A stretch of DNA of 64,000 nt from Aptenodytes patagonicus (taxonomy: Eukaryota; Chordata; Aves; Sphenisciformes; Spheniscidae), in contig NC_134963.1 of the NCBI RefSeq assembly GCF_965638725.1, positions 10,878,501 through 10,942,500 of the forward strand. Direction: 5' to 3'. Each line of letters begins with the position of its first letter. The stretch's first letter is position 1. Positions 40,994-64,000 of this stretch are shown here, piece after piece. Below the pieces are notes generated by a model that worked only from the letters and a program-made list of their open reading frames with translations, was not told where the DNA came from and searched no databases. Position numbers and translations under genes: made by a program.

Positions 40994-43977
40994 ATGTGGG
41001 GCCTGCTGCTCTGCGGGGGCTGGCTGCTGGCCGCCGGCTACCTGGTGGGTGCCATGGGTGGCTGCTGGCACCAGTGCTGCCCGGGCAGGAACAACGCCTG
41101 CTGGGCCCCAGGCGCCCGCCGGGCTCGCTGCTACTGTGACTCATACTGCGAGAGGACAGGTGACTGCTGTGAGGACTACCATGCCGTGTGCCGCCGCGCC
41201 GGTGAGTATTGGGACGGGATGGCACCGGCTGGGCCCCCTGCTCGGGGGGGAGCCCCAGGGCTGGGGGTGCCAGCCTGGGCTGCTGCTTGTGGTGGCAAGT
41301 GTTTGCTATTATCTGTTAGCCCCATACTTTGAGTGGTAACAGGAGGTGTCTGGGGATGCCAGCTGAGCTGGATTTGGAGCAATATCCCAATTTTCTGCTT
41401 TTTTCCACGCTGAATGTCTGGCTGCTCTCTGTGCAGTGAGAGAGCCCGCAGGGGTGGCCTCTGGTCTGCAGCTGAGAATTACGGGATGACAGTAGCGCTG
41501 TCCTTGCAAGCCTCAGAGCTGTCAGTGTGGGACCTGGGTGGGATGAACCCTGGCATCAACCCCTGCCACTGCTGCGGGCGGTGCCTTGCACGGGGGCACG
41601 GGAACTGGGGCCGGTGGCTGCGCTGGGGGTGACAAACAGAGTGTGGGCTTGGGGGGTGCAGGGCCAGCCCACCCTGGGGACCCAAACCCGGACAGGCGCC
41701 GGCCGCGGCCCCCTGGACAATTGCAGCAGTCAGCCCTCCCTAATCTCCAGGATATTAGCGGGGTCCCAGCTCAGCGCGATGCAGAGCTGCGGCAGCGGCG
41801 CGGGGATAAAGGCCTGCGGAAGCGGTGCACAATGCCACCGCGCCGGCGGCTGGCAGGGCAGCCTCTGCCCGGGGGTTGGGGGAGAGGGGCCGCCGGGGTC
41901 ACCCTGCCCCTTCTCCTGCCTCCCCTCTCCCCGTGCTGCATCTCCCCTTCTCTCCTTCCATTTTTCATGCTATTGAAGCTCTCTTTTCCCTCCTCCATCC
42001 TGCCTGCTCCCCTGGCCCGCTGGCAGCAGTGGGCTGCGCGGTGGGGCCCTGGGGGCCATGGAGCGGGTGCAGCTCCCCGTGCGGGGTCGGCAGCAAGGCC
42101 CGCAGCCGCCAGGTCACCGTCCCGCCCCGGCACGGAGGGGAGCCCTGTCCCGACCTCAAGCAGCGCCGCGGCTGCCTGGGGGAGCACCCGACCTGCGGGA
42201 CGGCCAAAGGTAATGTGGGTCCCACGGGGATGCCCACCTCCCTCATGCGTGACCGTCTCCTGGTGCTGCCGTCCCCCCTGCCTGTCCCGGGGCGTCTTTA
42301 ACCGTCTGTGTGTGTCCCCGGCTGCTCTTCTGCCAGAGGTGGCCAAGATATTACCTGACTCCTTCAGCCGGGACTTCAGGGATCCCTGGCGAAGAGCTGG
42401 GCTGCTGCTGCTGGAGGAGCCATCCAGGTGGGTGTGGGGCTGGGGCCCCTCTGCACCCCCCCTGCCACAGCCATGGCCCCTCTGCACCCCTATACAAAGC
42501 CATGGTCCTTCTGCACCCCGTTCTAGAGCCGTGGCCCCTTTGCACCCCACCTGGAGCCATGGCCTCTGCACAACCCCCACCCCCCAAAACCATGGCCCCT
42601 TTGCACTCCCTCCTAGAGCCATGGCCCCTTTGCAACCCCCCCAGAGCCATTATCCCCCCCCAACCATGGCCCCTTTTCACCCCCCAGACCTATGGCCTCT
42701 TTGCACCCCGCCAGAGCCATTACCTTTTCCCCCACTCCCCAAACCATGGCCCCTTTGCACCCCCTCCTAGAGCCATGGCCCCTTTGCAACCCCCCCAGAG
42801 CCATTATCCCCCCCCAAACCATGGCCCCTTTTCACCCCCCTACAAAACTATGGCCTCTTTGCACCCCCCCTAGAGCCATTACCCTTCCCACCCCCCAAAC
42901 CATGGTCCCTGTGCAGCCCCCTACAAAGCCATGGCCCCTTTGCACCCCCAAAAGCCGTGGCCCCTTCTCCCCCCCCCTCCAAACCATGGTCCCTTTGCAC
43001 CCCCCAACGAAACCATGGCCCCTTTGCACCCCCCCCCGAGCCATTATCCTTTCCCTCCCCCCAACCACGGCCCCTTTGCACCCCCAAACCCATGGTCCCT
43101 TTACACCCCCATCCATCGAGAAAACACCACAACCTCATGCCCTACCCTCCAACCACCATTTTCTCACTTCCCCCCCCCCATTTTCGCCCCTCCCCAGCTC
43201 CCCCCTCCCCAGCTACTGCGGCTATTTCCGCCTGACGCAGGTAGGGCCCCCCTGCCGCGGGCAGGCCTGGAGCCGCCGGCTGCACCGGGACAAGCGGGTG
43301 TGTGTCGAGTGCCGGGGGGACGCGTCCCACCGCCACCCCCATTGCACTGGACACGGGCTGCAAGGAGCCAGGTAGGTGGTGATTTGGGGGGGGGCGCCCC
43401 TTCGGAGGCGCAACGCGCCCTTAGGGCGCGTTGCGCCTCCGAAGGGGCGCTCCCCCCATGGAGGAGCATCTCTCCGTGCCCCTAAGGCATCTTCCTTTTA
43501 TATTCTTAATTCTAAATATAATATATTTATATATAAAACTAATATTATATTATAATATGCACAATATTATAAGATAATATTGTAATATGCCATAATATTA
43601 TAGGATAATATTATAATATACCATAGTATTATAATATAAATCAATAATATGTACTATAAATCGATAATATATAATATAAAAATAAATATATTTATATAGA
43701 ATAGAATATTTCAGTTGGAAGGGACCTACGGTGATCATCTAGTCCAACTGCCAATATATGTTGTTATATATATATGATTATATATATTATATATATAACT
43801 GTATATAATTTTTAAAAATTATATTTACTTTTTAACGCTGTGCCCTAGCTTTCACCGGCTTTCCCTTCCAGGACGTTTTGGGTGGCCGCCTCCATGGCGG
43901 GGTGCCAGGGCTCGTGGGTGCAGGAAGGGCTGGAGGAGGGTTGTGTCTGCCCCCCGCCGGCTCTCATCTTCGTGTAG
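40994..43977 (+). CDS. SBSPON-like secreted protein (somatomedin B + thrombospondin type 1), 5 exons
   Basis: The exons are 40994-41201, 42030-42209, 42337-42427, 43213-43371 and 43872-43977. Phases close to 247 codons plus TAG. Exon 1 encodes a signal peptide (MWGLLLCGGWLLAAGYLVG) and a ten-cysteine somatomedin B domain ending GDCCEDYHAVC. Exon 2 encodes a thrombospondin type 1 repeat with WGPW, a typical C-mannosylation motif, and CSSPCG. Exon 4 (YCGYFRLT...KRVCVEC) and exon 5 (CQGSWVQEG...CVCPPPALIFV) match the cysteine pattern of the C-terminal domain of SBSPON. The organisation is that of SBSPON, but the locus beside SLC25A1 suggests a paralogue. The start is chosen because the ATG has a good context (CACCATG) and opens directly into a signal peptide; an in-frame upstream ATG at 40949 would bury it. 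The protein is probably extracellular; its partners are unknown. Confidence 0.88.
42024..42029 (+). other. Tandem NAGNAG splice acceptor of SBSPON-like exon 2
   Basis: The acceptor of the thrombospondin exon reads GGCAGCAG|TGGGC. Using the first AG would insert one alanine between the somatomedin B and thrombospondin domains. Both forms stay in frame. Confidence 0.6.
42470..43130. repeat. Minisatellite in intron 3 of the SBSPON-like gene
   Basis: Diverged tandem copies of a C-rich unit, core GCCATGGCCCCTTTGCACCC with spacers such as CCCTAGA or CCCCAAA, run through most of the intron in roughly 15-20 copies of about 30-40 bp. Long frames on both strands are by-products of the lack of stops in this repeat. 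The exon 4 acceptor follows about 80 bp downstream. Confidence 0.9.
43394..43450. repeat. Perfect GC-rich inverted repeat (27-bp arms, 3-nt spacer)
   Basis: The arms at 43394-43420 and 43424-43450 are exact reverse complements around TTA and begin GCGCCCCTTCGGAGGCGC. The element lies 23 nt into intron 4 of the SBSPON-like gene and would form a strong hairpin in the pre-mRNA. Confidence 0.97.
43494..43845. repeat. AT-rich microsatellite-like tract
   Basis: Degenerate TATA/ATTATA repeats fill some 350 bp inside otherwise GC-rich DNA in intron 4 of the SBSPON-like gene. A short CR1 fragment is embedded in it. Confidence 0.9.
43699..43753 (-). mobile_element. CR1 LINE 3'-end fragment
   Basis: On the minus strand this reads GGACTAGATGATC, then GGTCCCTTCCAACT, then ATTCTATTCT. 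This is the characteristic end of avian/reptilian CR1 3' UTRs, including the degenerate ATTCTATGA-type terminus. Only about 55 bp remain, a severely 5'-truncated copy flanked by AT repeats. Subfamily cannot be assigned by eye. Confidence 0.75.
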
Positions 43978-45327: not shown

Positions 45328-46881
45328 CTACAGCTGCAGGGTCTCCTTCTGCAGCTCCAGGATCGCTGTCTGCAGCTGGCTCTGCTTCTCCCACCACTCC
45401 CCGGCTGTGCCGACATGGCCCCACAGGCTGGGCTGGGACACCTCTGGTGCCGAAGGGCTGCCTGAGCAGAGCAGAGAAACGCATTAGAGCCAGCAAGGGG
45501 ACGTGGAGCTGCGGGGAACCGCCTGCTCCTGCCCTTTCTCTCCCACCACTGCCCCTGCCATTGCTGCGTGGGCCTCCCGGCCCAGCCGCTTCAGGATGCC
45601 AGGCTGCCGGGATGGGTCGGCGATGCTGAAAGCAGACCCCAGGCCCGCTCCCTGCCAACTGTACCGCAACCTCCCAAAAGCTTAACCCTGCAGGATTTGG
45701 CCTTTCCCCCCAGCCTCCTCCATGTGCTGCAGCGGCCGGTGGGAGCAGGGCAGGGCAGGGCATGGCTGCCCCAGTGTGGGAGCTGGAACAGGCAGGAAAA
45801 GCAAATGGGCTTTTCTCTTGGAAAAATGTGGGTTTTGGTCAGCTTGTCCACAGCAAAGAAGCTGCTGCCTGGGGAGGGCTGCTGCAGCTCTGCAACCCAC
45901 CCGGCCTGAGGACGGGGCTGGGAACCATGGCAAGGGTCCGGCTTGCCCGGCTGGGTGGGTGCTAGGGAGGAGGGCAGAGTCCAGCAGCAACGTGGGCACC
46001 TCACCGTTCTTCTCCGGGGCCAGGGGGCCAGGGCTGCCCGTCGCCCTGCTCTGTATCGCCAGGCTCGCTGTCGTGCCGAGGCACGGCCACACCAGTGCTG
46101 GGCTCGGCGAGCACTTGATGCGAAAGGGCGTGGGGGGCTCGGGGGAGCTGGCTGGCAGCACCGGGGCTATCCCCACTGCACCATGGCCCTGCGGTGAGGT
46201 GAGACGGGGAGCTGCCACTGGGAGCATCTCAGCCGTGGGCAGGTTGGGGGCTGCAGGGGCCATGCCAGGAGGTGTCAGTCTCTTTTCCACACTGGCCTGG
46301 GTTCCTGCCAGGAGCAAGCTCTCCTTGGAGTCGGGCTCTCCGCCAGCTGCACCAAGGAGGCTCTCCAGCATAGGGTCAGGGACTGGCAGGGCCCCTGCGG
46401 GGCAGACCAGCCCCCAGCACAGGGTGGCAGTGCTGCTCTGGCCGTGCAGGAGCAAGTCCAGGGTGACCTCCAGCATCCAGGGGGGATGGGGGGGGCCACT
46501 GGCTGCCCTCGCTCTGGAGGCCGAGGCTGAGAGCAGTGGGTCTGGCAGCCCCGGGCCAGGCTTATTGAAGAGGGTGAAGACGTTGTGGAAGAGCTCCTCC
46601 TGGGGCCGCTGGCAGAGCAGCGAGTGCTTCTCCACGGCCAGCTCCCTGCAGGCGTCAATGTTGTGCCACTTCTTGCAGATCTCATCAGGCATGCACTGGA
46701 CCAGGAGGCTGAGGGAGTTGATGGTGGCCGTGATCTCCTCCCAGGCACGCTGCCAGGCCAGCGTGTTCTTGTACCAGCCGCTCCTGGGGATCATGATGTC
46801 CTTGCGGAGGCTGAACTCCTCCAGGATGAGGAATTTCTCCTCCTTGGAGAACTTGATGTGCTTTGGCTTGATCATGCTCAT
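45328..46881 (-). CDS. Myb/SANT-like DNA-binding domain protein, in-frame TAG near the C-terminus
   Basis: Exon 46005-46881 is joined to 45328-45461 (AACG|GTGAGG donor, CTGCTCAG acceptor, phases agree) and gives 336 codons. Residues 8-75 form a Myb/SANT-like (Myb_DNA-bind_5 type) domain: KFSKEEKFLILEEF at the start, AWEEI with W47, and EICKKW with W72. A proline/serine-rich middle follows, then a C-terminal leucine-zipper-like helix (WWEKQSQLQTAILELQKETL). At 45328-45330 this helix meets TAG. The same frame continues for 23 more heptad-like codons (EKILLEKEKLLLEIIRLH...) to TGA at 45256-45258, so the stop looks recent, most simply CAG to TAG. The product is probably a nuclear DNA-binding protein that dimerises by the coil. 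This family often descends from Harbinger-type transposon Myb-like proteins. I cannot name an orthologue. The start is the first ATG, just before the domain. Confidence 0.72.
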
Positions 46882-47459
46882 GCTGCCGGCGGGCGAGGAG
46901 GGGGTGAGGATGAGGGATGATGGGTCGGGGTGTGCTCACGCCAAGCACTGCTCCATCCCCCTGTCTGGGGCACGCCGAGCCGGGGCTGTGGCACTGCTTG
47001 GGGCTCAGCAAGACTGGCTGCCCCCGGGGGTGCTGATGGTGGTGTGTCCCCCCCCGGTGCTCCCCAAGCCCAGACGCCTGGCAGGATCCCTTGCTGCCAC
47101 CGGGCCGGTGCCAGGCAGACGGCATGGGGAAGCGGATGTGGCCACATTCTGTTCCGTGCTGGGGCGGGCCTGGTACCGGGGCAGGGTGGCTCCAGTGCCC
47201 GTGGGGCTCAGCCAGGCGCTGGGTCTTCACCTGCCTGTCTGCTGCCTGCAGCCGTGAGCTGGTGGGCTGCACCTGCGGGGCTGGGTGCTTGTGGGGGTTT
47301 TGTTTGTTTGCTTTGGGGTTTGGATGTACCCGGCTGCAGCTGGTGGCTGTTGCCCATTTGCTGCCCCATGATGCATTTGGCTCCCACCCACCTCCCCCTG
47401 CCTCCCCCTCTCCTGCCGCCCCTCCTGAGCAGGGAAATTAGAAGGCTTCAACGCTGGGG
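46882..47459. other. Spacer upstream of the Myb/SANT gene
   Basis: This GC-rich sequence lies between the start codon of the Myb/SANT gene and the 3' end of the THADA-like gene; both are on the minus strand. It should hold the promoter and any 5' UTR exon of the Myb/SANT gene. I recognise no TATA box or coding exon. Confidence 0.45.
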
Positions 47460-47874: not shown

Positions 47875-50800
47875 TCAGGCAGCCCCGGACAGTGGTCTCG
47901 GCTCCCCTAGCACATCATCCTGGCTCAGCGTGGGGGCCAGCCCATGCCGTGCCAGCAGCCCCTGCACCAGCTCAAGCTCCTGCTCCAGCTCCTGGGCGCT
48001 GCAGCCCAGCCCCGGCACGGCGGCGGCGCTTTCCCCCAGCACATGCAGCACCTGTGCCGCCAGCCGGGCCCTCACTAGCAGTACGGCCACGGCCACATGC
48101 AGCTTGGCACAGCCCAGCGCCTTCATCCCCCAGTGGGCAGCAGTCTCTGTGGAGAGAGTGGGCGAAGGAGCTGTGAGCGCAGCAGGGTCTCCCCCCAGGC
48201 AGAGCTGGCCCAGGGGACAAGGACACCAGCTTGCCTGTCCCAGGGCCTTTGCACCACCCCGCTCCCCCCCCCCGCGCCGTACCTTGGCTCCAGCGGTGCT
48301 TGCAGTACCGCAGGTCGTGCAGGACGCTGGGGCCCGTGGCTGCCAGCCAGCGCAGAGCTGAGGCATGGAGCGGGCTGCCAGCAGGCGCCTTCTCCAGGAG
48401 CTGCAGCAGGACGGGGAGCAGCTGCCGTGCCAGGACGGCCGGCTCTGCAAAAACGTTGGGTTCATCCTCCTTGTACAGGCTGGCAGCTCTGCGGGGGAAA
48501 GTCGAGGGGCAGGTGAAGCTGAGGGCCGGCCCCATGGCCCTCCGCGCTCCCTTGTACTCAGCCCAGGGGACTGGCAACTCACTTGTTGGCCTCCAGCTCC
48601 TCCACAATGGCCCTGAGATCTAGGATGGGGAGATGCTGCAGCAGCAAGTTGAAGGTTTCAGGGTGCTCCCCAAACTCTGCCAGGAGGAGCTGCAGGAGGC
48701 CCTGGAGGCCCATGTTGTCCTGCACAAAAACGCAGCTGTCTCGGAGCGGCTCGCTGGCGTCCTGTCGCAGGAGGCTGGCAAAACCTGAGGCCTCATGCCG
48801 GACCTCCTGCTCCTCGTCTTGCAGAAGGTGAATGCCCATGTTTATCAGCCTGGGGAAAGGGAAGAGAAGGGAAGGAAAGGCCACCGCACTTCCCAGCCTG
48901 CCTGGAGGGTTGGGGAAGGGTGAGACCCCTCCAGCAATGCTTCCCCGAGGGACTTTTCTCCTGGGTTGTGAAAGGCACAGCCACCACCCAAGAGCTCACT
49001 GCTTGGGAGGGCAGGGACCACGACATGGACCGAGGGACCCATCAATGCAGTTTATTGCTCATAAGGGACTGGCTGCTTCTATTAAAATGCCACCCACAAA
49101 TTTTTTGTAGGCTGCAAGCTCTTGGGTACTAGTGATTTTTGAATGAGTGGGATTTTCTTTAATGCCCTTGAATTTTTTGCGGGGAATATCGCCTTTCGCA
49201 GGGTCAGCCTATTAGTCTGCAACACGCCGGGGCTGTGGGCAGTGCTGCTCCTGCAAGGACCTACCGCAGAGCCACGGGGACGAGCGAGGGACAGGCAGCG
49301 CGCAGGGTTCGCTGCACCACATCGGCACCCGCCATCTGCAGGGAGCGGGTGGCCGCCAGCCGCAGCACCTCGGACGAAGCAGACCGGCTGCACTCCTCCA
49401 GCGCCATGCACCATCGCTCGACCAGGGTGCCGTCCTCGTCCTCAAGCCTGTCAGAGGCCGGGGAAGGAGAGCGAATTCAGGCACACCTTCCAGCTCTGCC
49501 CAGGGGTCCAAAGGCCACTGGCTGTCCTGAGACCGCAGGACCCAGGCGCAAAGCTGGCTGTGATTTACAGGCGAGAAGTTGTGGCTCTGTTTCCAGCAGG
49601 GACTAAGGAGAAATCTCCTGGAAGGGTCAAGCAGAGCCGCCCGGCAGCAGTGGGGACCTACCGGCGGGCGAGCAGCAGGCTGGCGGCACACAGCACCTGG
49701 AAGAGGAGGTCGGGGCCAGGACACTCAGCCTCCACCATGTGCAGCAGCATCTCCAGGCATGCTGCCGAGGAGCCCTGGAGCTTATGGGAAGCTTCCTGGG
49801 ACAACGACGAGGGGTCTCTGTAAAGATGCAGCAAAGCCTCAAGGTACAATCTCAGGAACTCTTTGTCCCTTCTCTCTCGCAGCACCGACCCCAAGCTCTC
49901 CTAGTTGACAACAGGAAAGAAGGTACACGGTTAGTGGCCCCGGCACCACGGGGTGGCAACCTCAGCACAACCGGGTGAGCACCCTGCACCCGTGCACCCT
50001 CAGCCCGGGGAGCACCGTGCTTCTCAGTGAGCACCCAGGATCCCCTCTGCGCAGTGCATTGGGGACCCCCTGCTTTACTCAGTGACTTTTGAGCCTCATC
50101 GTACCAGCAGTGTCAGCCTGAGAGCCTTCTCCAGCTCCTTGCACGTTCCTTCCTCCCTGGCAATCACCCAGCTCAGGACGGCAAGCTGGACGTCGGGATT
50201 TGGCTGCCGGAGAAGTGAGCAGACGGCGCCAATCCGCTCGCCGTCTGCCAGCCGGGCTGCCTCGCTGCACACAAAGCAGGCCATGGTTTGGTGTAGGATG
50301 GCCAAGCCCACCTGGAGGAAAACCAGGATCCCCCTTCCAACACTCAGCCTCGAATGGGGTGTGTGCCCCCCAAGTGGGGGGGTCCCCACCTCCCACCCCC
50401 TGGCTCGCTGTCAGGCAAGCCATGACTGTGATTTTCCCGGCAGGCAGCGGTACCTGCAGCTCGGCACATCCTGACTTTCCCCCTGGCGGGAGGCTGCCCA
50501 GCTCAGTGCTGACAGCATCACGGATGCTCTGGGCGAAGCTGGGGCTAAAGGATGCAGGCAGGAGGGCGAGGACCTGGAGGAAGGTGGCACGGACGAGCGG
50601 GCAGCGCTGGGCAGGGGTGAGCAGCCAGCCCCGTGCCTCCAGCTGCAGAGCCACGCGGCGCAGCGCTTCGGTCGACAGCCTGTGGAGAGACGCGCAGCCT
50701 CACCATGGGGCCCACAGCACAGGCGCGGGCACCGCTTTTCGGCCAAAAAGCTGCATCTCAACACAGAGCGACTGCAAGGGCCATGGGCAGGGGGGATGGC

Positions 50801-53800
50801 GTGGGACCACTCACCCATTGGTGCCTGGGGCGGGGGCCAGCAGTGCCTGCATCTGCAGCAGGTGCCCATGGACGGCGTTGTGCGAGCAGACCCGTCCAGG
50901 TGCGGCGGGGAGCTGCCGGGCCAGCTGCAGGAGGAGCCCCTGGCGCCGGGGCGGCGGGACAACCGGCACCAGTGCCTTGGCAGCCATCGCTCGCACAGCG
51001 TAGATGGGGCTCCCTGCCAGCCCCAGCAGCGGCCCCAGGAAGCGAGCAGAGGGGCTGTGGAGCAAAAAAGGGCACCACACGGTGATGCTCCAGCCAAAGT
51101 GAAACCCCCTGAGAGCCAGGGCCAGCCCTGGCACCGCAGGACCATCTCCTGCTGTAGGAGCCCTTGGCCAAGGCAGAGCATCCCTGCTGCTCCCTCACCT
51201 GCCGGGGCTGTCAGCGCCAGGCTGCAACTGGGCCAGGAGGGTGAGGACGGCGTGGAGCGCGGGACGCAGGCAGGACCCCCCTGGCACGGGCCCTGCGGCC
51301 GCCCCCAGCTCACCCAGCAGCACGGCGCCCAGCTGGGGGTGCTGCCCGAGGAAGGCTTGCAGGCTCACCCCCTCTGCCGGGCAGCCCTCCCCATGGCTCC
51401 GCTGCTGGCCCAGCAGCCGGGAGGTGAGGGCGCCTGCAGGGACAGGGAAGAAAGCAGCGTCAGGTCCCCTCTACCCCCTGCCCGGCCCACCATGCTTCAC
51501 CCCGGCCAGGCTCCGAACCCAAAGGGTTGCATCGGTCCTGCAGGGGTCTCTTGCCTCTCCCCTTCAGTACTCACTGAAGAGCTGGATGGCCGCGTTCCTC
51601 ATGGCCCAGCACGGCGAGCCCAGGCCCCGCAACGCCAGGGCCACCATTGGCGTGGCATACCGCAGCAGCGCGCTGCCCAGCCCCGCGCCGCGGACCAGCG
51701 TCTGCAGCACATGGAAGGCACACACCTGGGGAGAGCACGCAGGGCTCAGCAGCACTACGTGGGGAGGGGGCTCACGCTTCCATGCAAAGGGAAGATGGTG
51801 GGAAGAGACAGGGGAGCCAAGGGGCCGTCAGCTCTTGGGCTGCCGGGATGGGCAGCGTGGCCAGGGCTGCGTTTTTTTGCTCACCCTGAGGTCTCCGTGC
51901 TAGAGCAGCCTTGTGCTGGGGTACCCAGCGTGGTTCCCTTTAGGGGACCTTGTGCAGATCACCCTATCCCCAAATGGGCTACAGCAGCCAGGAGCTCAGC
52001 GCCCGCCGCGCTCACCTGCGGGAGGTCGAGGGTCTGGTCCCAGTCCTGCGGCAGGGCCGTGGTGGCCAAGGCCAGCAGCGTCTGGACGCACCGGGTCAGC
52101 AGCGGCCGTGCCTGTGCCGAGGCCTCCCCGCTGACGATGCAGAGGAAAAGCATGGGGAAGCCGGCGGCACGGCGCGTGATCGAGCTGCTCCGTGGTCCAC
52201 TCAGTGCTTCTAAGCCCTGAGGAACAAAACCCACCCAAGATATGGCTGGAAACCTGCCAGCTGGAGCCTGCAGCTGCTCTGCAGGGGAGGGCACTGGCTG
52301 TACCAGCCCCAAACTGTGGCGTCCCAGCTGCCAGGCGGGTGCTCACCCCAGGGTGGAGGGACACAGCCCCCGGCCTTGGGGCTCCTTGGGGCACAGGGGA
52401 AACGTGGGGCAGAATGAGTGTGGTACCTGCTCCAGCATGGTCTGCGGGATTGCCTGCAGCTCCTTGTCTGGGTGGTTCAACAGAGCAGCACAAAATTTGG
52501 TGAAGCCCATGCTGCAGCCCTCCACCGCTCCCTAGGGCAGAGCAGCGTCAGGCCCCCCGTGCCCCAAGGCTGCACCCACCGCCCCCCCCCCAACCCCCAG
52601 AAACCTCTTTGCAAAGGGGAAGGAGAAAGTGAGAAGACATCATGGTGTGGGGACATGACGGGATTTGGCACCAGGATCCCCTCTGTGTCCTGTGTCCTGC
52701 CCCAGAGCAGGCCCTGCCCCACTGCACTCACGCTCCCTGCATGCTGGCAAGAGCCCCTGACTATTGAGCCGGGGCAGGGACCGGGGCCGGAGGGGTGGGC
52801 GAGGGGCTGAGCCACCCCAGGCGGATGCACTCTTACCCAGTGCCGGCACCGCAGCAGGATTTCCTGGAACACCCTTGCGGCCATCTGCAGGGTGGGGAGT
52901 GGCAGGAGGGGACCCAATCCGGTGGGCAGCGCCGGGGCCAGCAGCAACTCAGCCAGGCCCCCCAAGAGCAGTCCTATCTCCTGGGAAGAAGTGGAAAGTC
53001 ACGGGGACCGGCAGTGGGGCTGCCCCGTTCCTGTCTTGCCCCGTTCCTGTCCTGCCCCTCCGTCGCTGCCGCAGGGAAGCACAGCAGGTGCTGCCGTCGC
53101 CCCCCAGCACAGGCGCTCTTGGTTGCTGGCGCCGTCAGGCAGCGTGGCCGGTGGGATGCCCACGAGCACACACAGCCTCCGCAGCACGGTGGTTTTCCAG
53201 CCAGCTGCAAGGCGTGCATGGCAGAGATGGCCTTTTTCCAGGCAGCCACCAGAGAGGAGAAGCCGGGATGGGTGGCTGTTGGGAAGGAGCCATGATGAGC
53301 GGCCACAGGGCTGTAAGCCCGGGAGCCTGGCTCTGCCGCAGCTGGACTCTGTCAGTGCCTGGGAACCAGCTGGGCTACATAAGGGCAGGCAGGGAGGTGG
53401 CTGCTTTTGGGGAGGGTGGTGGTTGCATCTTCCCTGGCAGAGGGTGAGGATGGCCTGTGGCAGCTCTGAGGTAAGGGCAGAGATTCCCCTTCTTTGTCCC
53501 CAGGGAGGGTGAATGCCCCAAGGGGAGCTGGAGAACCCAGCTGCTGGGGTGGGCTGGGCAGTGGGTGCTGTGCTGGGGTGTCCCTCTCCCCGGTGCTGTA
53601 GGGTGGGGTGCCTACCTTCACTGATACCCAGCAGCAGGTCAGGATCAGGCTGTGCTCTTCCGAGAGCAGGACTGAGTCCTCCTCCTCCTGCTGCCCCTGG
53701 CCTTTCCCCAGCATGATGAGGGAGCCAATGGCGTTCCCCATGTCTGCAAATGATGGGGCGGCAGCTGTGAAAGGGAGAAGCCTGGTCTGAGTGGGGCTGT

Positions 53801-56800
53801 GTGGGGCAGTGCCTGTGCAGGGCAGAGGGAGGGGGATGCTGCTGGGGGGGTGTGGGGGACCTGCTGTCCCCTGTTCAGAGTGTGCACAAATGGCAGTGGC
53901 TCCTGTCCTGCAATGTGTCCCGCTCAGGACCACAGTTGCACTTTGCCCCACTACTCTTTCTGAGACATTGCTGTAAGGGCTCCACCAGCCCCTGCTCTCC
54001 CAGCTGCTTCGATATGGCAAGTGCCTCGCTGCTTCTGGAAGGTTTTTGCCTCTACTTCTGCTGCTGTTCTCACATGCAGTTGAGAAAGGGACCCAAAATC
54101 AGGCACTAGCTGCTCTGCTCCCGTGGTTTCCAGGATCCTCTGCCCAATACCTGGAGCATCCTTGCCTGGGTGTCCTGCTTTGGACCTCACTCCCAGGCCA
54201 ACCTTCCCTGCCCAGCCCCACTGCTGTCCCCTGCTAGAGGCAGTGAACCTAAAGCCTTTCTCAGAGGCTGGAGGGCTGCTGGGTCAAGGACGGCTGCGAT
54301 GGAGGTGCCAGTGGTTCCTGGGGCTGGTCCCCTCCTGGGGACACGCTCACCTTGCTCATTGGCGCCAGGGCCTTGCTGGCTCTGCAGAGCACCCAGGAGG
54401 AAGGAGGTGATGTCTCTTGCTGTGGTCACGAGACGGGTGAGGAGCTCCTGCCAGCTCTGCACCGACTCCGCTGCCTGCATGGAGGTGGCCACCTCTGGCA
54501 CCTGGAGCAGGCACCTCCGCAGGGCTGCGATGGCTCCTGCATGAACACCCATCTCCGGTCACAGCGGTGGCCAGTGCAGCCCCAGCTCTCCTGCCTGAGC
54601 CTGCTGCTGAAATGGCTCACGGGCAGGGGAGCGAGCAGGGCCCCTAGGTGAAGGGCACGCTGGGCAGGTGGAGCAGCAATACAGGGAAACTGAGGCAAGG
54701 ACATGGCATCAGCACTGAGTTGTGGCCTCAGTCCTGCCTGTACGATTCCTGCCTGCTCCAAGTTCCCAAGGAGGAGCCCTGCCATGGGAGCTGCTTGCTG
54801 CCCTGCCAGGCTGGGGACGTACCATGCATCGGTGCGGTGGCTGCCGCCTGCAGCAGGTCCCGGCACGCTGCAGTGTACTGGGCTTGCAGCATGTGGAGAA
54901 GGTGCTGAGCGAAGCAGAGGCCTCGGTTGGGCAGCGTGGGGGCTGCTTCAGCCTCCAGGGCCAGGCTTTTCATGGTGCTGCTGTCTGACCTGGGGGAAGG
55001 GGCAGAGGCTGCTGCAAGGACGAGGGAGTTTTCTGCCCGACTCGTGCTGTGCAGCTCTTTCCTGCCTCGGCTCGGGGTCCTGCACCCCAACCCTACCCAG
55101 CTCCCCACTGCAAGGCTATTTCAAACCCAAGCCATCGCTGCCCTGAGCTGTAAATACAGCCTCTGGCAAGACACCGGTGCTGCCAACGTGCTCTCGGGGG
55201 CTGCCATGCCAGGGAGGGGGAGGCTGGGAGCTCATACTTCCGCAGGATGGTCTTTATCAGCACGGCTCCGGCTTCAGCCTCCTGCACTCGTGGGCTGCCC
55301 AGGGCGTCCTGGGCCAGCTGGAAGAGAGCCAGGGTGATGGGCTCGGGGAATGCAGCGGGGAAGTAGCGGATGAGCAGCTCCGAGGCCAAGTCTCTGATCT
55401 GCCAAGACAGGAGAGGTGGGGGGAATTGGGACACAAGATGGAGGGGAAAGTAGCTGGGGCAGGGCAGGAGGGGAAGCCCACCACCCTTCTCCTCTGAGCC
55501 TGCTTGGGGCCAAGGCAGGTGGCTTTACAACCATTAAGGATCACCTCGTTAGTATTGTCCTGCAAGCAGCTCAACAGCGCCAACAAATTGGGTTGAGAGA
55601 AGAAGTCCCAGCAGCCGCTCTGCCTGGCGTAGCTCAGCAGTGTGGCCATGGTCCCTGTGGTGGGGACACGGGGTGGTGGGACGGGGCTGGCGGGGAGCAC
55701 CCCCGCAGCAAGGGGTGATGCGCTGGGCGGGCTGTCTGTACTCACGCGGGGGCTGGCCTTTCTTCCTGTCAGGGCTCCAGGTGTCCGTGCAGGTCTCCAA
55801 AACAGCAGCCAGGAGGAGCAGAGCCGTCTTCTTCCTCTGGTAATTGGAGCCCGGGCTGAGCGAGGCGATGCTGAGCTGCAGCAGCCACTCCACAAAGCCT
55901 GCGGGTAGAGAGCATGGCAGCGAGTTATGCTGGGCTTGGACACCCACTTCTAATTCCCCCGGGGGCCGTGGTGGAGGTGCCAGGGCAGCTGCCTCACCTA
56001 CTGCCTGGGCAAGCTGCCCCACTCCCTTGCCCGGTTCGGTGCCTCGGGGCACCTTCCCTCGAAGCTGGGCCAGCGAGCTGTCCCGCAGCCGGACCAGCGC
56101 CTTCCTCACTGCTGCCTGCAGCAGCTGCCGGAATGAGGAGGAGTTGCAGTTGAGGTTGAAGGGCAGGAACTCCCGCAGCAGCCGCACCTCTGTGCTTGAG
56201 AGGGACTGGTTGGTGCTGGGGCTGCAGCAGAGAAGACCCAGCGCTGCCAGCCGAACGCCTTCCTCGCGGGCGCCCAGGCAGCAGGAGAGCCGCTCCAGCG
56301 TCTCGCCCTGCAGCAGCAGGGCCCCCACCACGCTATTCTGCGCCTTCAGCAGCGAGACCCAAGCCCGGAGCGATGCCGTGTCCCGGCCACTGAACTGGGC
56401 GGCCAGTGGTGCCCGGGTGGCCGGGAGCTGCCGCAGGGTCCAGGCGAGGAGGTGGTTGGCGGCATTGCTCTGAAGGATGGGCAGGGGGGAGCGGAGTGCC
56501 TGGGAGAGCAGGGGCAGCCAGCGCAGCACCCACTGCTCCGCCAGAGCTGCCTCTGTGCCCTGCTGCCTGTCCTGCTGCTCGGTGCACTGCTGCCGCACCA
56601 GGGCCTTGTAGACCTCGGCAGCTGCAGGACACAGGTGGTTGGTGGAGAGGCAGCTCAGGAGGTGCTGCGGCAGGTCCGGGTAGGCATCCAGCACCTGGGA
56701 GAAAGGCAGACAATCCTCATCTCCCTGCCAGGCTGAAGGCTACGTATGGTGGGGGACAGATCTGGGTACGGACCACACTGCGGGCACCCATGGCACTAGG

Positions 56801-59800
56801 CATCTCTGGTATCCCAAGCTGCTTTTGGCCAGATTTTGGTGGGCATCAACAGGCAAAGCTTCCCTCCCTGCTGGCAGTTCCCAGGGATGCATCACTGTTG
56901 CTGCAGCTTCCTACCCCACCAGGGGTACTATCCCTTGGGTGATGCTAAAACAGTCCCCCTGGCTGGGAAGGCTGCCTGCCCACACAGATGAGCTGGGCAG
57001 GGGAAGGTGACAGGCAGCAGACAGAGGCTGTGCCACCCCGGCAACAGTGCCAGCTGGGACTGAGCCTCCCCATCCCCCCCGCCTTCCCTACCTGCTGGCT
57101 GCCCACATAGGGGACGATGGCACACAGGGGCACGTATCTGGCTTTGATTTGCCACGGCATTGAGATCACCCTCTGCAGCGTCTGTTGGTAGAGGGGTCTC
57201 TCCTGGTCCTGGAAGTGCTGGCACTCAAGGTGGTAGATCTCCAGGAGCAGTCGGAAGGAGCTGTGGATGAACTCAGACACACCTTCCACCTGGGGGGGAA
57301 AAAACCAGCAAGCAGGAGAGGTTAGGGTGGACTCCCCCTCCTGTCTCGCTGCTTCAGGAAAGACCCTTTGCTTTTCTGTGGCCGTGGACTTTCAGTACTG
57401 GCTGGTAACCATGAGGTTAGGAGCTGGGGACGTGGGGATGGCAGGAGGTGAGCCAGCAGGTGTGGACTGGCTGGGACTGCACCGTGGGTGCTGTGTGGGG
57501 AGGGCGAAGCACTGGGACACGGCCCTGAAGAGGCCGTGTGTGACGAGTGCCTCAGCCTCTGCAGCATGGGTGCCCCTGCTCTGCCAGAGGAAGGCAGCTG
57601 CAGGCAAGGGGGTTGTATTTGGTTGATGGAGCTGAAACAGGTAGGGGTGTGTTATGGGCAGGGGAAGGGCAGCTGAGCCGGGCAAAGGAAGGGCTGTTTC
57701 TGGCTGCTGTAGCACAGGCTTTCAGCACCCCAGCCTTACCGGGGTCTCGGCATTGTCCCACACCAGCTGGGTGAGCTGCTGAAGGAGCTCGGCGTCCCGG
57801 GCCAGGATGCGGGTCCCCATCAGGCGCCAGACGGCAGGCAGGCTCTCCCGCAGGCGCTGCAGCCACAGGGCGCAGGCTGCAAAAGCGGAGAGCACCACTG
57901 CAGCCCTCACCAGAGACACTCGCATGCAGCAGAGCTGTCACGGGCTGCTGGGCTTAAGGACCCTGTGTGCAAGGGGAGCCGTTTGCCCATTAGATACACA
58001 AGAGCCTGAGAGGTTTAGTGTCCATCAGGCTGGAGCAGATATTAATAGCAGTTTCCAAACCAGCCACCAAGATCCAGAAAAGCATCTTCCCCAGGAGAAG
58101 ATGAAGCGCCATGGGGGCTCCATGTATCATGAGCACAGTGAATCCTTCAAACCCCCTTGCCATGGCAGGGTCATCATCTCCTACCTTGGAAGCAGTAGTA
58201 GTGGCAGTCCTTCTGCTCCTTGGTCAGGGCACACACAGCGGGAAAGACCACGTCCAGCAGCAGGCAGGCCTGTGGGAGCACAGCGGCTCAGGGAGCGGGC
58301 AGGCACGGGCTTTCCAGGGTGAGAAAACCCCACCATGAGACAGGCGAGAGCACTGCGTGGTTTTCCTGCTCTTACAGCAGCTTATTGCTAGCTTTCGCTC
58401 CCTGTCTGGAAGTCCTCAGCTCTTGAGGACTCGGGAGATGCTGCAGTTGGGCAGAGCTGGAGGCTGCGCTCTGCCCAGAGGGCAAATGCTGCTGCCGCTT
58501 CACTTGTGCAGGGGCTACTTTTGGCACCACCTGGCTTCTCGCCCCCCCGAGAGAGGGAAACCCCTGCCCAGATGTCTTTGGAAAAAGCAAGCTCCTGGCT
58601 AACGTGCTGTGCTCAGCGGGATGCGTGGAGCTGCTGGTGCGGAGCGGTGCAGCCTGGCTACGTCCCACGTGGATCCACAGCCCCTGCCGGCGGCTGCCAG
58701 CCCTGCACAAGGGGCTCTCCAAATCCCTGGCTGCTGAGTTTGTGCTCTCCTACCTTGTGGGTGAAACTCTCCAGCTGGCAGCTGAGGATGTCTGTCTTGC
58801 AGCATGTCAGCAAACCTCTGGTGAGCACCAGCTTCTCCAGCCCGTCTGGCTTCAGGACGGGAGGGGCCTCCACCACCAGCTCCCCAAACTTCAGCTCCCC
58901 TGCGCCTGGTCGGAAATGGCTGCGTTAGATGGCAGAAGGATGGCAAACCCAAATGCTGCTCTGAGAGCGAACTGCCCTAGGTCATCCCAGAGTGACCGTG
59001 GGAGGTGGCCGGTGGCAGCTGGGGCTCCTGCACCCCGAGAGTGGGACGCAGCAGCAGAGTCCGGCTTGGACTGCTGGTGAGTGGCACCGGCCTCTGTCCC
59101 CTTGCACCCAAACATGCCTGTCCCCGCCGTCCCCTTTGCCAGAGGCCATCCCCAGCTCAGGATGGAGTGCACACCTCGGTTGGGGAGATGGAGGAAGGCC
59201 AGCACGGCGCTAGCCCCGCGCTCGGGCTGGGGGGCTGTGTTCACCAGCATGCTCAGGGCCGTACCCACCAGCAGCCGCGTGTCCTTGTTCAGGGCCTGGA
59301 CTTGCAGGGGAGGCAAAGGCACAGCTCAAAACACCATTTGAAAACCAGACCCAATTTAACCCTCCCTCCATGCCCACGCAGGCAACTATGCAGGGTCCCT
59401 CGGACACCCCAGGGGTTGGGACTGCCTCTGCAGGCTCCCCTCGGGGAGGGGAATGGGGAAAGCACCTGGGAAGGACGGCAGCACTCTGCTCCTCGGGACA
59501 GGCAGCACCATCCCTCCCCAGGGCTGTACGCACCTTCCCCCATGCCACCTCCAGCAGCAGCCCCAAGAGTCTCTGCAGGGCTTCACTCTTCTCTGCTGCG
59601 CTCCACACCAGGGGGGCCACATCCTTCGGCAGCGCCTGGAAGAGCTGGAGGCAGGCCTGGAAGAGGAGGAGGGACAGGGGCCGCGGGGATGGCTGTCAGC
59701 ATCCCTCACCTCTCAAAAAGCAGCGATTCCCCAGGGATGGCCATTTGAAATGGCGCTGTGTGCCACATCCCTCCTGGACATTGCCCGGCTCAGAGGGGGC

Positions 59801-61924
59801 TCCAGCAGGTCCCTGTCCTTGCAGGGACTGATCCTTCCCCCCTCCTCTGAAATTTGGCTCTTACCTTGACAGCCAGGTAGCCCCACGTGCTGCCGGGTGC
59901 AGGCTGGCTCTGCAGCACCCAGCGCAAGGTGGTGGCCAGGCGCTGCAGCAGCGGGGCCAGGTTCTGCCGCCAGTGCTTCCGGCCCAGGCTGCTCTCCTCC
60001 ATGAACATGCACACTGTGGGCAAGGGGACAACATCAGTCCCCAGTCCTCCTGGCACCATGCCTGCAGCCGGCCCTGCTCCCGGTTAAGCCAAGGCCTGCG
60101 CTGCCGGTAAGCAAGGTAGGAACGGGGCTGGGATGCAGGGGATGCTTTGGCTTGTCTGGTTTTCAGCTGTCCTGGGTGGATGGGCAGAGACATTGGGTGC
60201 TGCTGGGACCTCTGCAGAAATCCCACGGATCCGGCTGATCCCTGCTCCCCCTCTCATGAGTGCAGAGGACTCGGTCTGGGTGGGCAGGGGGTGTCCTGTG
60301 CATTGGTGGTGTGGGCTGGGAGAAGCTGCCGGAGGGGAAGGAGCAGAGACTGACCTGACTGAAGGTCCCCAGGAGACAGCACCTGCAGGGGCAGAAGGAC
60401 AGTTTGTCCCACGTGACGACACGCTGGGGCTCAGTGCCTTGGGCAGGAGGGTCCCAGCGATGAGCAAAGGGCAGTCACATGTCGCTGGCTGCAAGCAAGG
60501 GCGAGCCCCCAGCACAATGGGAAGAGAAGCAAAGGACCCCAGGCAGCCCAAACCAGGAGGCCCCTGTCACACATGGGCTCCAGCCAAGCCCCCATGAAAG
60601 CCGGTGTCACCACACAACCAGGGTGCTCTCACCTCTCCCTGCGGCGCCAGGCCGGCCAGAAGCGCGCCCACCTCCTGGGCCAGCAGGGCTTCCTTCCCCA
60701 CTGCCAGCTGGGTCACGATCTGCCAAGAGACACCCTGAGTCAGTCAGTCTGCCCGGACCCCCGAGAGATATCAGCTTCAGTGTGCTTTTAGGGGAGCTCT
60801 GCGGTGTCACCGTGGCCCCTTTGCCAGTAAGGATGTACCACGCCGGGGCTGTGCTGGCAGCAGGCAGAGCCGGGTGAGACCATCGCTTACACTTGTGGCT
60901 AATAGAGCTCTGAAGCCGCAGCCCAGCTGGTTGCATTACGGACCTGTTCCAGTTTCTGGAAGGAGCTGGAGCTGCCGGTTGCCTCCATCTGGAAAGCCAG
61001 GATGCAGCGGAGCAGGGGCCGTGCCTCCGCCTCGCCCAGCGCCTGCAGACCCTCACTCAGCGTCCGTGACAGCAGGAGAGCCTCCTCCAGGTGCTTGTCT
61101 TTGCATCTCTTGGCAGTACTCCTGAAACGGGTGAGGATAGCCTGGCTTAGTGGGGCTTGAGGTGGGGGATACCCCAACTTGGTGGGGATTAGGGTTGGGG
61201 TGCCCCAGCTCAATGTGGATTGGGGTGGGGGTACCCCAACTCAATTTGGATTAGGGTGGGGGTGCTCTGGCTTGGTGGGGATGAGGGTTGGGGTGCCCTA
61301 GGTTGATGTGGATTGGGGTGGGGGTGCCCTGGCTTGATAGGGGTTAAGGTTGGGGTGCCCTGGCTTGGGATGCTCCTCTCTCCCAACTGCACTCAGCATT
61401 GCATGGGGTGTGGGGGGGGAGAAGCTCCTCAAAGTCCAGAGTCCATGAACTGGCCCGTTCTGGCTAACGCAAGCACTTGGCAGGGCGGCAGCGGGGGGCG
61501 GGGGGGGGGGGGGGGGAGAAGGAGGGGAGAGGCAGAAGGACCCGGAAAAATCCTAAAATCTGCTGCCCTGCTGCTGCAGCGCGGGCTGGAAGGGGATGGG
61601 GGCAGGTGGGGGTGGCTCGGTCCCCGGAGCTGAGCCTCCCTCCCTCCCTGTCGACCCCCGCCCGGGGGGATGCTCGGGAGACCCGCACCGGGTACCCACG
61701 CCCGGTGGACGCCGAGATCCGCGCCCAGGGGATGCTCGGGGGCTCCACGCCGGGGGATTCCGGGGGGACCCGCGCCCGGGGGGATGCCGGGGGCTCCTTG
61801 CCCGGGGCCCGTCCTCTTACCCCGCGAATTGCCGCAGGCAGCGCAGGCAGGAGAGCACCGGCTGAGCGATGCCCAGCGTCCCGTAGAAGGCAGCGCAGGC
61901 CCGCGCCTCCCGCTCGGCTCCCAT
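47875..61924 (-). CDS. THADA-like HEAT-repeat protein (Trm732/THADA family), complete, 31 exons
   Basis: Exons from 5' to 3' on the minus strand: 61821-61924, 60944-61121, 60633-60719, 60355-60382, 59865-60013, 59534-59656, 59175-59295, 58754-58905, 58185-58269, 57740-57876, 57092-57289, 55998-56694, 55746-55898, 55545-55654, 55238-55398, 54823-54989, 54351-54536, 53616-53764, 52837-52980, 52427-52531, 52016-52216, 51575-51725, 51199-51433, 50815-51054, 50454-50679, 50105-50311, 49662-49900, 49265-49447, 48583-48849, 48283-48488, 47875-48146. All junctions are GT-AG and phases close to 1,886 codons plus stop; human THADA has 1,953. The protein is helical-repeat throughout. The DUF2428 core carries ITRRAAGFP near residue 1092 (human ATRRSAGIP), then FHVLQTLVR (human LNILRALFR), GSPCWAMRNAAIQLFS (human TSPVWAVRNSSTLLFS) and RAMAAKALVPVV (human REMAARALVPFV). 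THADA/Trm732 proteins partner the FTSJ1/Trm7 methyltransferase for 2'-O-methylation of tRNA position 32. Much of the N-terminal half differs from human THADA, so I read this as a paralogue. A diverged THADA itself is the alternative. Confidence 0.87.
60355..60382 (-). CDS. 28-nt coding exon 4 of the THADA-like gene
   Basis: Exons 3 and 5 do not share a phase: exon 3 ends in phase 0 and exon 5 needs one leading base. A 28-nt segment between them, flanked by CCCCTGCAG and GTCAGT and reading VLSPGDLQS, supplies exactly that base. The phase argument supports it, but the assignment is by eye. Confidence 0.65.
61147..61375. repeat. G-rich minisatellite in intron 1 of the THADA-like gene
   Basis: Diverged tandem copies of a unit of about 32 bp, such as GGATTGGGGTGGGGGT followed by ACCCCAACTCAATTT or GCCCTGGCTTGAT, repeat six to eight times just upstream of exon 2. 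The alternating GGGG tracts make G-quadruplexes plausible on the plus strand. Confidence 0.85.
61491..61516. repeat. Poly-G tract
   Basis: Six G, one C and then a run of 17 G lie in intron 1 of the THADA-like gene. This is a hard-to-sequence site with quadruplex potential; the exact length may be unreliable. Confidence 0.85.
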
Positions 61925-62478: not shown

Positions 62479-62648
62479 TGAATAGCCAGCGGAGGGACTC
62501 CGCTTCTTCCTGCGGGATGGAACGGCCTTTGGAGAGAGGAGCAGATTTATTATAACACTTGATGTTACTTATCATTAAATCCAAATGATTTTACCTAGGT
62601 TCTTTTTGTCACTCGGCACAGGGTTGAACTATTTTAACAGGCATGATT

Positions 62649-62709: not shown

Positions 62710-64000
62710 GCATCTTTATTAAACACAGTTATAACTCCTGACTAATGCATGCCACTGAACTTCACCCAGCGGCTATCAAGATAGTGCTCCTGACTGGTTT
62801 TGACCTTGAAGGATTGTTTTTCCCCTGGGTTTTTCCCTCACAGTGGCACTGGGGCGAACGATGGGCATCGGCTGCTTGGGTGAATCAGTGGCACGGGCAG
62901 CCCAGGAATGCACGGCTGGGACGGGCCAGCATCTGCGCTGGGTGACCAGGAGGATGCTGAGATGTGGCTCCCTGGGTGAGCGCTGTGCTTGGGGACAGAA
63001 AGGCCCCAGCCTGTACTTTTTGGCAACGTTTGCCAGCAGTGTCCATCTCTGTTCTGCTTTAGAAATCAACCTGGATGCCCAAATCCAGCCACGGGTCCAG
63101 GTTTGCCCTGACTGCTGCCAGTATCAACCAGTGAAACAGCCCGGGACTTACCCCAGGTAAGGCAGAGCAGTGCAGGAGGACGGTCACGTCCCTCAGACAT
63201 GCTCTTCCACTCCCCAAGCCCTGCGGTCACCCCACAGGGGTGAGGGAGTGGGGGGAAGCGCTGCCAAACCAGAGCTCCCATGGGTGCCAGCACCCAGGCA
63301 GGGGCAAGGCGAGGCAGGGTGCTCCTGTGTTTTAGGGTCTCCAAAGCTCCCGTTCCCATCCCCTTGTGCTGCCTGCAGAAGGGAGGGGCAGGGGAGGAAG
63401 AGGGGGATTTTTTTCTGGTTTCACCATAGGAAGGATTTCAAACCCTATAAATTCACTTTTGACAAGCGAACGGCTAAAGCAGATTAACCTTTTTGCTAAT
63501 CCTCTATAATGGCTTTGGAATCTCCTTAACCAATAAGAAAATGATAAGAGCCTGTTTCTTTTCTTTTTATCTATATCTATATTGTCCTCCCTTGTCTGCA
63601 TTTTTTTTCTTTCTTGTTTTATTTTCCTTCCCTTTTCTAATATGAAATAGCCCAGCGATCCTATCTCCTGGAGGCTCAGTAAACAGAACATCAATAATCC
63701 CTTTCCTTTATTCCTCTCCGGTAACAGGGTGCAGAGAAGTGTCTGCCGATTGGGATTTGATTACCAGCAGCTATCAAAAGTCTCTTTGTAAGATCTGGGT
63801 CCTAAATCCCATAATTCTTTGATAAAAGAAGTATTACCAGTCCATTTTCTGAAGTGAAAGGTACGGGAGGAATGAAAGAAAGCAATCAGCAGAGATCCTA
63901 ATAGGCTAAGTGCATGTGCGGTGGGAAGGCAGGGACGGGTAGGGGAGGCCAGGGAAAGGCGTCCTTTGTTAAGGATGGGGAAGGAGAATTAATCCGCTTC
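62710..64000. other. Non-coding region upstream of the THADA-like gene
   Basis: No exon with a family or coherent splice signals is seen; open frames here are short and featureless. From about 63480 the DNA becomes AT-rich, with GATAAG, TAATCC and ATCAAAAG/CTTTGAT motifs, which could be a distal regulatory block or simply neutral sequence. Confidence 0.4.

What the first reader, a model, noticed from the sequence alone, without database searches (positions are those of the whole stretch)
47875..61924. An intact second THADA-family gene in the CLTCL1-SLC25A1 neighbourhood
Thirty-one exons splice in phase to 1,886 codons with the conserved DUF2428 core. Human THADA is at 2p21 and, as I recall, chicken THADA is on another chromosome, whereas this copy sits in the 22q11-syntenic block. 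Its N-terminal half and some middle segments (e.g. NYQRKKTALLLLAAVLE) differ much more from human THADA than the core does. This suggests an old paralogue kept in birds, and perhaps fish, but missing from mammals. A second regulator could redirect the FTSJ1/Trm7 methyltransferase or serve another scaffold role.
Basis: partly seen in the sequence, partly recalled or inferred. Interest (0 to 1): 0.7.

Follow-up and report, generated by a model that had tools for sequence, protein, structure and literature searches.

The report
A second, ancient THADA gene
This vertebrate genome (probably a bird's) carries, besides its ordinary THADA gene, a second intact and very old relative of it; THADA helps an enzyme put a methyl mark on transfer RNA, and that enzyme was not found in this genome, so the pair is a lead on a gene loss that has not been explained.

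Summary
Confirmed: the minus strand of 61924-47875 holds an intact gene of 31-32 exons (1,845-1,909 codons in most models) with all three THADA/Trm732 Pfam domains. The same assembly has the ordinary THADA on contig C3, 64% identical to human THADA; the window copy is 25%. So it is a second THADA-family gene.

Only 2 of about 24 intron positions coincide with THADA's, whereas the neighbouring clathrin gene shares 8 of 8 compared introns with its paralogue. That resembles ancient eukaryotic paralogues rather than vertebrate duplicates.

Conserved motif residues are kept (16 of 25), but base-reading residues such as Y843 and F799 are changed. Best guess: a second tRNA 2'-O-methyltransferase adaptor with altered tRNA choice.

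A twist: FTSJ1, THADA's enzyme, was not found in this genome. Two papers report it missing, one in birds and one in chickens.

Absence from mammals, expression and function could not be tested. A gene labelled THADA already appears in a printed synteny-figure legend together with SLC25A1 and CLTCL1.

The parts
47875..61924 (-). THADA-family paralogue gene, ATG to stop, 31-32 exons
61821..61924 (-). exon 1 (start codon; 5' end not settled)
60944..61121 (-). exon 2
60672..60719 (-). exon 3 (uncertain)
60355..60382 (-). exon 4 (uncertain)
59865..60013 (-). exon 5
59534..59656 (-). exon 6
59175..59295 (-). exon 7
58754..58905 (-). exon 8
58531..58575 (-). exon 9 (doubtful; dropped in a 31-exon version)
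58185..58269 (-). exon 10
57740..57876 (-). exon 11
57092..57289 (-). exon 12
55998..56694 (-). exon 13, large, most of TPR_Trm732; holds the residue aligned to human Q680
55758..55898 (-). exon 14 (NYQRKKTALLLLAAVLE; GC donor; its 3' intron coincides with THADA's at human 771, phase 1)
55545..55654 (-). exon 15 (3' end uncertain)
55238..55398 (-). exon 16
54823..54989 (-). exon 17
54351..54536 (-). exon 18
53616..53812 (-). exon 19 (5' end uncertain); CCW of the DUF2428 core (W1054)
52837..52980 (-). exon 20, motif 1 LLRCRHW|G
52427..52531 (-). exon 21
52016..52216 (-). exon 22, motif 2 ITRRAAGFP; its 3' intron (PQ|V, human 1208 phase 0) coincides with THADA's
51575..51725 (-). exon 23, end of DUF2428
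51199..51433 (-). exon 24
50815..51054 (-). exon 25, end of TPR_Trm732_C: residues aligned to FTSJ1 contacts P1358, R1363, N1401; motif 3 NAVHGHLL
50397..50679 (-). exon 26 (either end moved in one alternative model)
50105..50311 (-). exon 27
49662..49900 (-). exon 28
49098..49250 (-). exon 29 (weak donor)
48583..48849 (-). exon 30, weak match to the C-terminal part of human THADA
48283..48488 (-). exon 31, weak match to the C-terminal part of human THADA
47875..48146 (-). exon 32, stop (other ends in two alternative models)

Best explanation
The gene encodes a full-length, ancient paralogue of THADA (the Trm732 family). It most likely works as THADA does: a hollow alpha-helical cylinder that holds a tRNA and docks an FtsJ-type methyltransferase so that it 2'-O-methylates position 32 of the anticodon loop. 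The conserved motifs are kept and several residues that read the bases at positions 36 and 38 are changed, so I infer a different set of tRNAs. Shown here: a second gene, an intact frame, the family domains, and a split much older than the human-bird split by sequence and intron positions. Inferred: the methyltransferase-adaptor role, the altered tRNA choice and expression. Open: which methyltransferase it serves, because FTSJ1 was not found in this genome.
For: All three family domains are well above their cut-offs. Motifs 1-3 are 16/25 identical to human, against 128/384 in the surrounding region (hypergeometric P 0.001; 0.004 when restricted to sites invariant between human and the C3 copy). 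Q680 and W1054 (tRNA) and P1358, R1363 and N1401 (FTSJ1 contacts in PMC12145424) are kept. Changed: Y843 to Q, F799 to T or N, E1225 to S; the paper ties Y843, F799 and T798 to A36/A38. The TPR_Trm732 region is more basic than THADA's (net +14 against -1 in human and 0 in C3). Old split: 25% identity; branch 2.2 against 0.25 and 0.21 substitutions/site for human and C3 THADA; 2 of about 24 intron positions shared, against 8 of 8 for the clathrin pair. PMC3488318 states that ancient eukaryotic paralogues lack conserved intron positions while more recent ones keep them (passages).
Against: Of 15 named contact residues outside the motifs only 4 are identical in the MAFFT alignment (12 in the C3 copy). 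Y843 and T798, whose mutation nearly abolished activity in human THADA, are changed or of uncertain alignment (T798 is N in MAFFT, T in the spliced alignment). FTSJ1 was not found in the assembly. The motifs could be kept for folding rather than methylation. The DUF2428 region itself is not more basic than THADA's (net -4 against -2 and 0), and the basic charge elsewhere may partly reflect GC-driven arginine bias. No outgroup sequence could be obtained, so the age rests on three sequences, a saturated distance and intron positions; PMC3488318 also says that poorly conserved coding segments can gain introns faster, with numerous gains in mammals.
Confidence: 0.55

Rival explanations
1. A vertebrate-era duplicate of THADA (for example from the two early whole-genome duplications) that evolved very fast on a GC-rich small chromosome.
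For: Strong GC bias (GC3 0.81 against 0.39 in C3 THADA) and an amino-acid composition shifted to A/G/P/R (0.31 against 0.19) inflate divergence; it sits in a block with a clathrin gene that has its own paralogue on C17; poorly conserved segments can gain introns (PMC3488318).
Against: Only 2 of about 24 intron positions are shared, in all 18 model/alignment combinations, while the neighbouring clathrin pair shares 8 of 8; PMC3488318 reports no apparent intron gain in conserved parts of mammalian genes and conserved positions in more recent paralogues.
Confidence: 0.15
2. A functional relative that no longer serves tRNA methylation and acts as a scaffold, for instance on the SERCA calcium pump as reported for THADA.
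For: FTSJ1 not found here; Y843, F799, E1225, F1321 and Q1400 changed; THADA binds SERCA in flies (PMC5392496, passages).
Against: The methylation-linked motifs are better kept than the sequence around them, and the ordinary THADA is kept too although FTSJ1 was not found.
Confidence: 0.2
3. A decaying pseudogene or an artefact of chance open frames.
For: No transcript evidence; a few weak splice sites.
Against: Intact 5.7-kb reading frame over 31-32 exons far above shuffles; GT/GC-AG at all 31 introns of the model; conserved motifs.
Confidence: 0.03
4. The window gene is simply the bird's THADA orthologue, moved to another chromosome.
For: A printed synteny-figure legend that names SLC25A1 and CLTCL1 also names a THADA gene (PMC9614664).
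Against: The C3 gene is 64% identical to human THADA (1753 bits) and the window gene 25% (229 bits); both are in one assembly.
Confidence: 0.01

Closest known systems
THADA / Trm732 (PF10350, PF25150, PF25151), human structure 8y2o
   Same: Same three domains in the same order (the C3 copy shows that order too), similar length (about 1,900 residues; the human chain is 1,981 with what I take to be a 28-residue tag), motifs 1-3 largely kept, alignable N-terminal part, weak matches in the C-terminal part.
   Different: 25% identity; different exon layout; base-reading residues Y843 and F799, and E1225, changed; different chromosome from the THADA orthologue.
The 'THADA' label (polygon 44) in the tetrapod synteny figure of PMC9614664
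   Same: A gene called THADA is listed among the gene names of a figure of the MIF-TOP3B region, with SLC25A1, CLTCL1, HIRA and ESS2; [quoted passage not shown]
   Different: Only the legend and other passages were seen; THADA's place in the block, the species and the sequence were not; the word THADA occurs once in the text, in that legend.
Paralogues kept in sauropsids and lost in mammals (PMC4290089)
   Same: That paper describes such reciprocal losses between birds and mammals (passages).
   Different: THADA does not occur in its main text.

Membership tests
THADA/Trm732 family | DUF2428 domain (PF10350) | tested here: met
   187.6 bits, cut-off 27, profile 2-259 of 259
THADA/Trm732 family | TPR_Trm732 and TPR_Trm732_C domains | tested here: met
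   85.4 and 106.9 bits, cut-off 27 each
THADA/Trm732 family | Conserved motifs 1, 2 and 3 | tested here: met
   5/8, 6/9 and 5/8 identical to human, 16/25 in all
THADA/Trm732 family | N-terminal tail-like domain as in human THADA (1-344) | tested here: inconclusive
   A part of similar length aligns at 66/318 identity over 27-400; fold not shown. Yeast and worm homologues lack it (PMC12145424)
THADA/Trm732 family | FTSJ1 contact residues | tested here: inconclusive
   P1358, R1363, N1401 kept; R1368 is K; F1321, C1393, F1398, Q1400 changed; the C3 orthologue itself differs at C1393 and F1398; Q1449 not seen
THADA/Trm732 family | Binds FTSJ1 and drives Nm32 | not testable with these tools
   needs biochemistry; FTSJ1 not found in the assembly
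THADA orthologue of human THADA | Closest relative of human THADA in its genome | tested here: not met
   C3 copy 64%, window copy 25%
Vertebrate whole-genome-duplication pair with THADA | Shared intron positions, as in the clathrin control pair | tested here: not met
   2 of about 24 shared; clathrin control 8 of 8. That the clathrin pair stems from that event is recalled
Gene lost in mammals | Absent from mammalian genomes | not testable with these tools
   no mammalian genome could be searched; that human has one THADA is recalled

The most novel reading that the evidence does not exclude
A second branch of the THADA/Trm732 family, older than the animals, survives in birds next to THADA. 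In a lineage that has lost FTSJ1 the two adaptors work with another 2'-O-methyltransferase, so birds carry out tRNA position-32/34 methylation with a rebuilt enzyme.
Probability: 0.12. Interest if true: 0.85.

Novelty: new member of a known kind. Interest (0 to 1): 0.6.

Why it matters
In the listings of eight literature searches (one search listed 20 of 64) I saw no paper that describes two THADA genes in one vertebrate. Studies that call a bird gene 'THADA' could therefore mix the two (inference): a goose association study reports THADA on a chromosome numbered 27 at 13.6 Mb (PMC11683055), and which copy that is was not tested. The pair also makes an open puzzle testable: FTSJ1 is named among genes missing in birds with unknown compensation (PMC4290089), yet this genome keeps THADA, whose known job is to work with FTSJ1, and a second copy.

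Tried and rejected
Outgroup search: viral contigs twice and genome contigs once gave no relative, so no rooted tree could be made. The branch lengths come from three sequences only.

Structure: AlphaFold2 of exon 13 alone, without an alignment, gave mean pLDDT 41.7; helical but not usable, and no fold search was run.

A model starting at 62575 was set aside for 61924, although its score is 3 units higher. A first model without homology missed one exon and misplaced boundaries in the core.

The C3 THADA model is sound to about human residue 1409; beyond that and in exon 1 it is not. Two of its exons are 11 bases long and probably artefacts, so its 30 introns include a few false ones. The random control placed all 31 window introns in the compared range, although about 24 truly lie there. 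In the clathrin control introns without a mapped column, or within 3 residues of the query's ends, were left out.

C3 neighbours: of five pieces upstream on the other strand one matched dynein light intermediate chain below the curated cut-off, too weak to use. ORFs at 45683-46933, 62844-63156 and 19483-19623 matched no Pfam family at E 0.01.

Human THADA letters are known for 1562 of the chain's 1981 positions, read from printouts; the rest was treated as unknown. Human residue numbers are chain minus 28, inferred from the motif positions; the paper's own numbering of the motif 1 arginine/histidine pair is inconsistent.

The FTSJ1 searches work exon by exon, and FTSJ1 has short exons (recalled), so a miss is not proof of absence; no sensitivity control with a gene of similar exon size was run.
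Full report
What was checked. The finding is a claimed 31-exon THADA-family gene on the minus strand of 47875-61924. I built gene models with a coding-plus-splice program, first without homology and then guided by human THADA letters read from PDB chain 8y2o_A printouts. The guided model has 32 exons and 1909 codons, starts at 61924 and stops at 47875; with a stricter intron penalty it has 31 exons and 1894 codons. The unguided score is 316.6, against 22.2 (sd 7.3, max 45.7) for 30 shuffles and 74 for the other strand; the guided score is 710, against 547 (sd 8.6, max 565) for 30 shuffled templates.

Family. The model carries DUF2428 (187.6 bits), TPR_Trm732_C (106.9) and TPR_Trm732 (85.4), all over their curated cut-offs of 27. 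Weak matches (E about 0.025) to two printed human C-terminal stretches fall on exons 30 and 31, so the likeness is probably not confined to the core.

Two copies in one genome. The window lies in contig C15 of a 1.35-Gb assembly. DUF2428 has 6 exon matches there, 4 on C3 and 2 on C15; TPR_Trm732 has 3, 2 on C3 and 1 on C15. The tool scores only its best candidates, so a further, weaker copy is not strictly excluded. The C3 gene is 64% identical to human THADA (1753 bits), the window gene 25% (229 bits). C3 therefore holds the THADA orthologue and the window a paralogue. The assembly is unnamed; that it is a bird is inferred, not tested.

Neighbours. Six plus-strand exons between 701 and 8392, joined, match Clathrin (201 bits), and seven between 36510 and 39290 match Mito_carr (153 bits); further clathrin exons run to 12313.

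Age. In a three-sequence tree the window gene's branch is 2.2 substitutions per site, against 0.25 and 0.21 for human and C3 THADA (LG+G4, 1221 columns). About 24 of the window gene's introns lie in the stretch comparable with the C3 gene, and 2 coincide exactly (human positions 771 phase 1 and 1208 phase 0; random mean 0.16, P 0.012); 4 lie within 9 bases, no more than chance gives (random mean 2.8, P 0.30). Six gene models times three alignments always gave 2 exact. As a positive control, the window's clathrin gene and its paralogue on C17 share 8 of 8 compared introns. PMC3488318 (passages) says that ancient eukaryotic paralogues lack conserved intron positions while more recent paralogues keep them, and that no apparent gain was seen in mammalian genes; it adds that poorly conserved segments can gain introns faster. 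I conclude that the split most likely predates the vertebrates and perhaps the animals. As a rough yardstick, the fly-human THADA match was published as E 10^-73 (PMC5392496, passages), and the window gene against human gives 2.5e-60 at a set size of 7 million residues. The databases differ and part of the human sequence is unknown, so this is only a hint. Without an outgroup fast evolution cannot be excluded.

How it may work. PMC12145424 (abstract, passages, introduction and discussion seen) shows human THADA as a hollow cylinder that anchors a tRNA and docks FTSJ1, which methylates C32. It calls motifs 1 and 2 essential and motif 3 part of the FTSJ1 interface. Motifs 1-3 are 16/25 identical in the window gene (LLRCRHWG, ITRRAAGFP, NAVHGHLL), above the surrounding 128/384 (P 0.001). 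Q680 and W1054 (tRNA) and P1358, R1363 and N1401 (FTSJ1) are kept; R199 and R1368 are K, and the C3 copy is also K at 199. Y843, F799, E1225, F1321, F1398 and Q1400 are changed. In all, 4 of 15 named contacts outside the motifs are identical, against 12 of 15 in the C3 copy. Since the paper ties Y843, F799 and T798 to A36 and A38, I infer a methyltransferase adaptor with different tRNA choice. The paper also says such residues are not highly conserved in the yeast and worm homologues, so the changes do not prove a loss of function.

The missing enzyme. FtsJ-family exons in this genome fall at C13, C11, C20 and C3 (6 matches). C13 is closest to MRM2 and C20 to FTSJ3; the C11 and C3 genes were not identified. 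Human FTSJ1 (chain 86-212) found C13 (33%), C20 (46%) and one match at E 4.8; yeast Trm7 (chain 79-202) found C13 (35%), C20 (39%) and three matches at E above 3. The search is exon by exon, so short exons could escape it. PMC4290089 (passages) names FTSJ1 among avian losses without known compensation, and PMC7841431 (passage) says FTSJ1 is absent in chickens, writing of the EBP-like locus. Either FTSJ1 lies in DNA that assemblies miss, or another enzyme has taken over. I recall that chicken tRNA-Trp carries Cm34, which would argue for a surviving activity; this was not checked.

In print. Eight literature searches bear on this gene: THADA+paralog (64 papers, 20 listed), THADA-like, 'thyroid adenoma-associated protein homolog', DUF2428, Trm732+THADA+duplicat, THADA+chicken+chromosome 15, THADA+CLTCL1 and THADA+birds+gene loss+mammals+synteny. 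Two more were on intron positions and FTSJ1. No title or abstract start in these listings describes a second vertebrate THADA gene; most of the papers were not opened. PMC9614664 lists THADA as polygon 44 in its synteny figure legend, with SLC25A1, CLTCL1 and HIRA among the names, so a gene of this name there is probably known to annotators. Automatic database entries could not be searched.

Noticed in passing
genome G000, whole (window's own assembly): FTSJ1 was not detected by family or by human and yeast protein stretches; only MRM2-like, FTSJ3-like and two unidentified FtsJ-family genes appear.
   Followed up: partly
window 61161-61368: Tandem array of a 31-base unit (6.6 copies) in intron 1 of the gene, next to the GC-rich 5' end.
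   Followed up: no
window 42444-43110: Minisatellite of 29-base units, partly also read as a 165-base unit, that yields a long open frame.
   Followed up: no
window 45682-46935, minus strand: 417-codon open frame between the carrier gene and the THADA relative; no Pfam match. It begins like a SANT/Myb-type protein to my eye, which is recalled and untested.
   Followed up: partly
PMC11683055 (goose association study): A SNP for a body-size trait is assigned to THADA on goose Chr27 at 13.6 Mb; it could lie in either THADA copy (inference, not tested).
   Followed up: no
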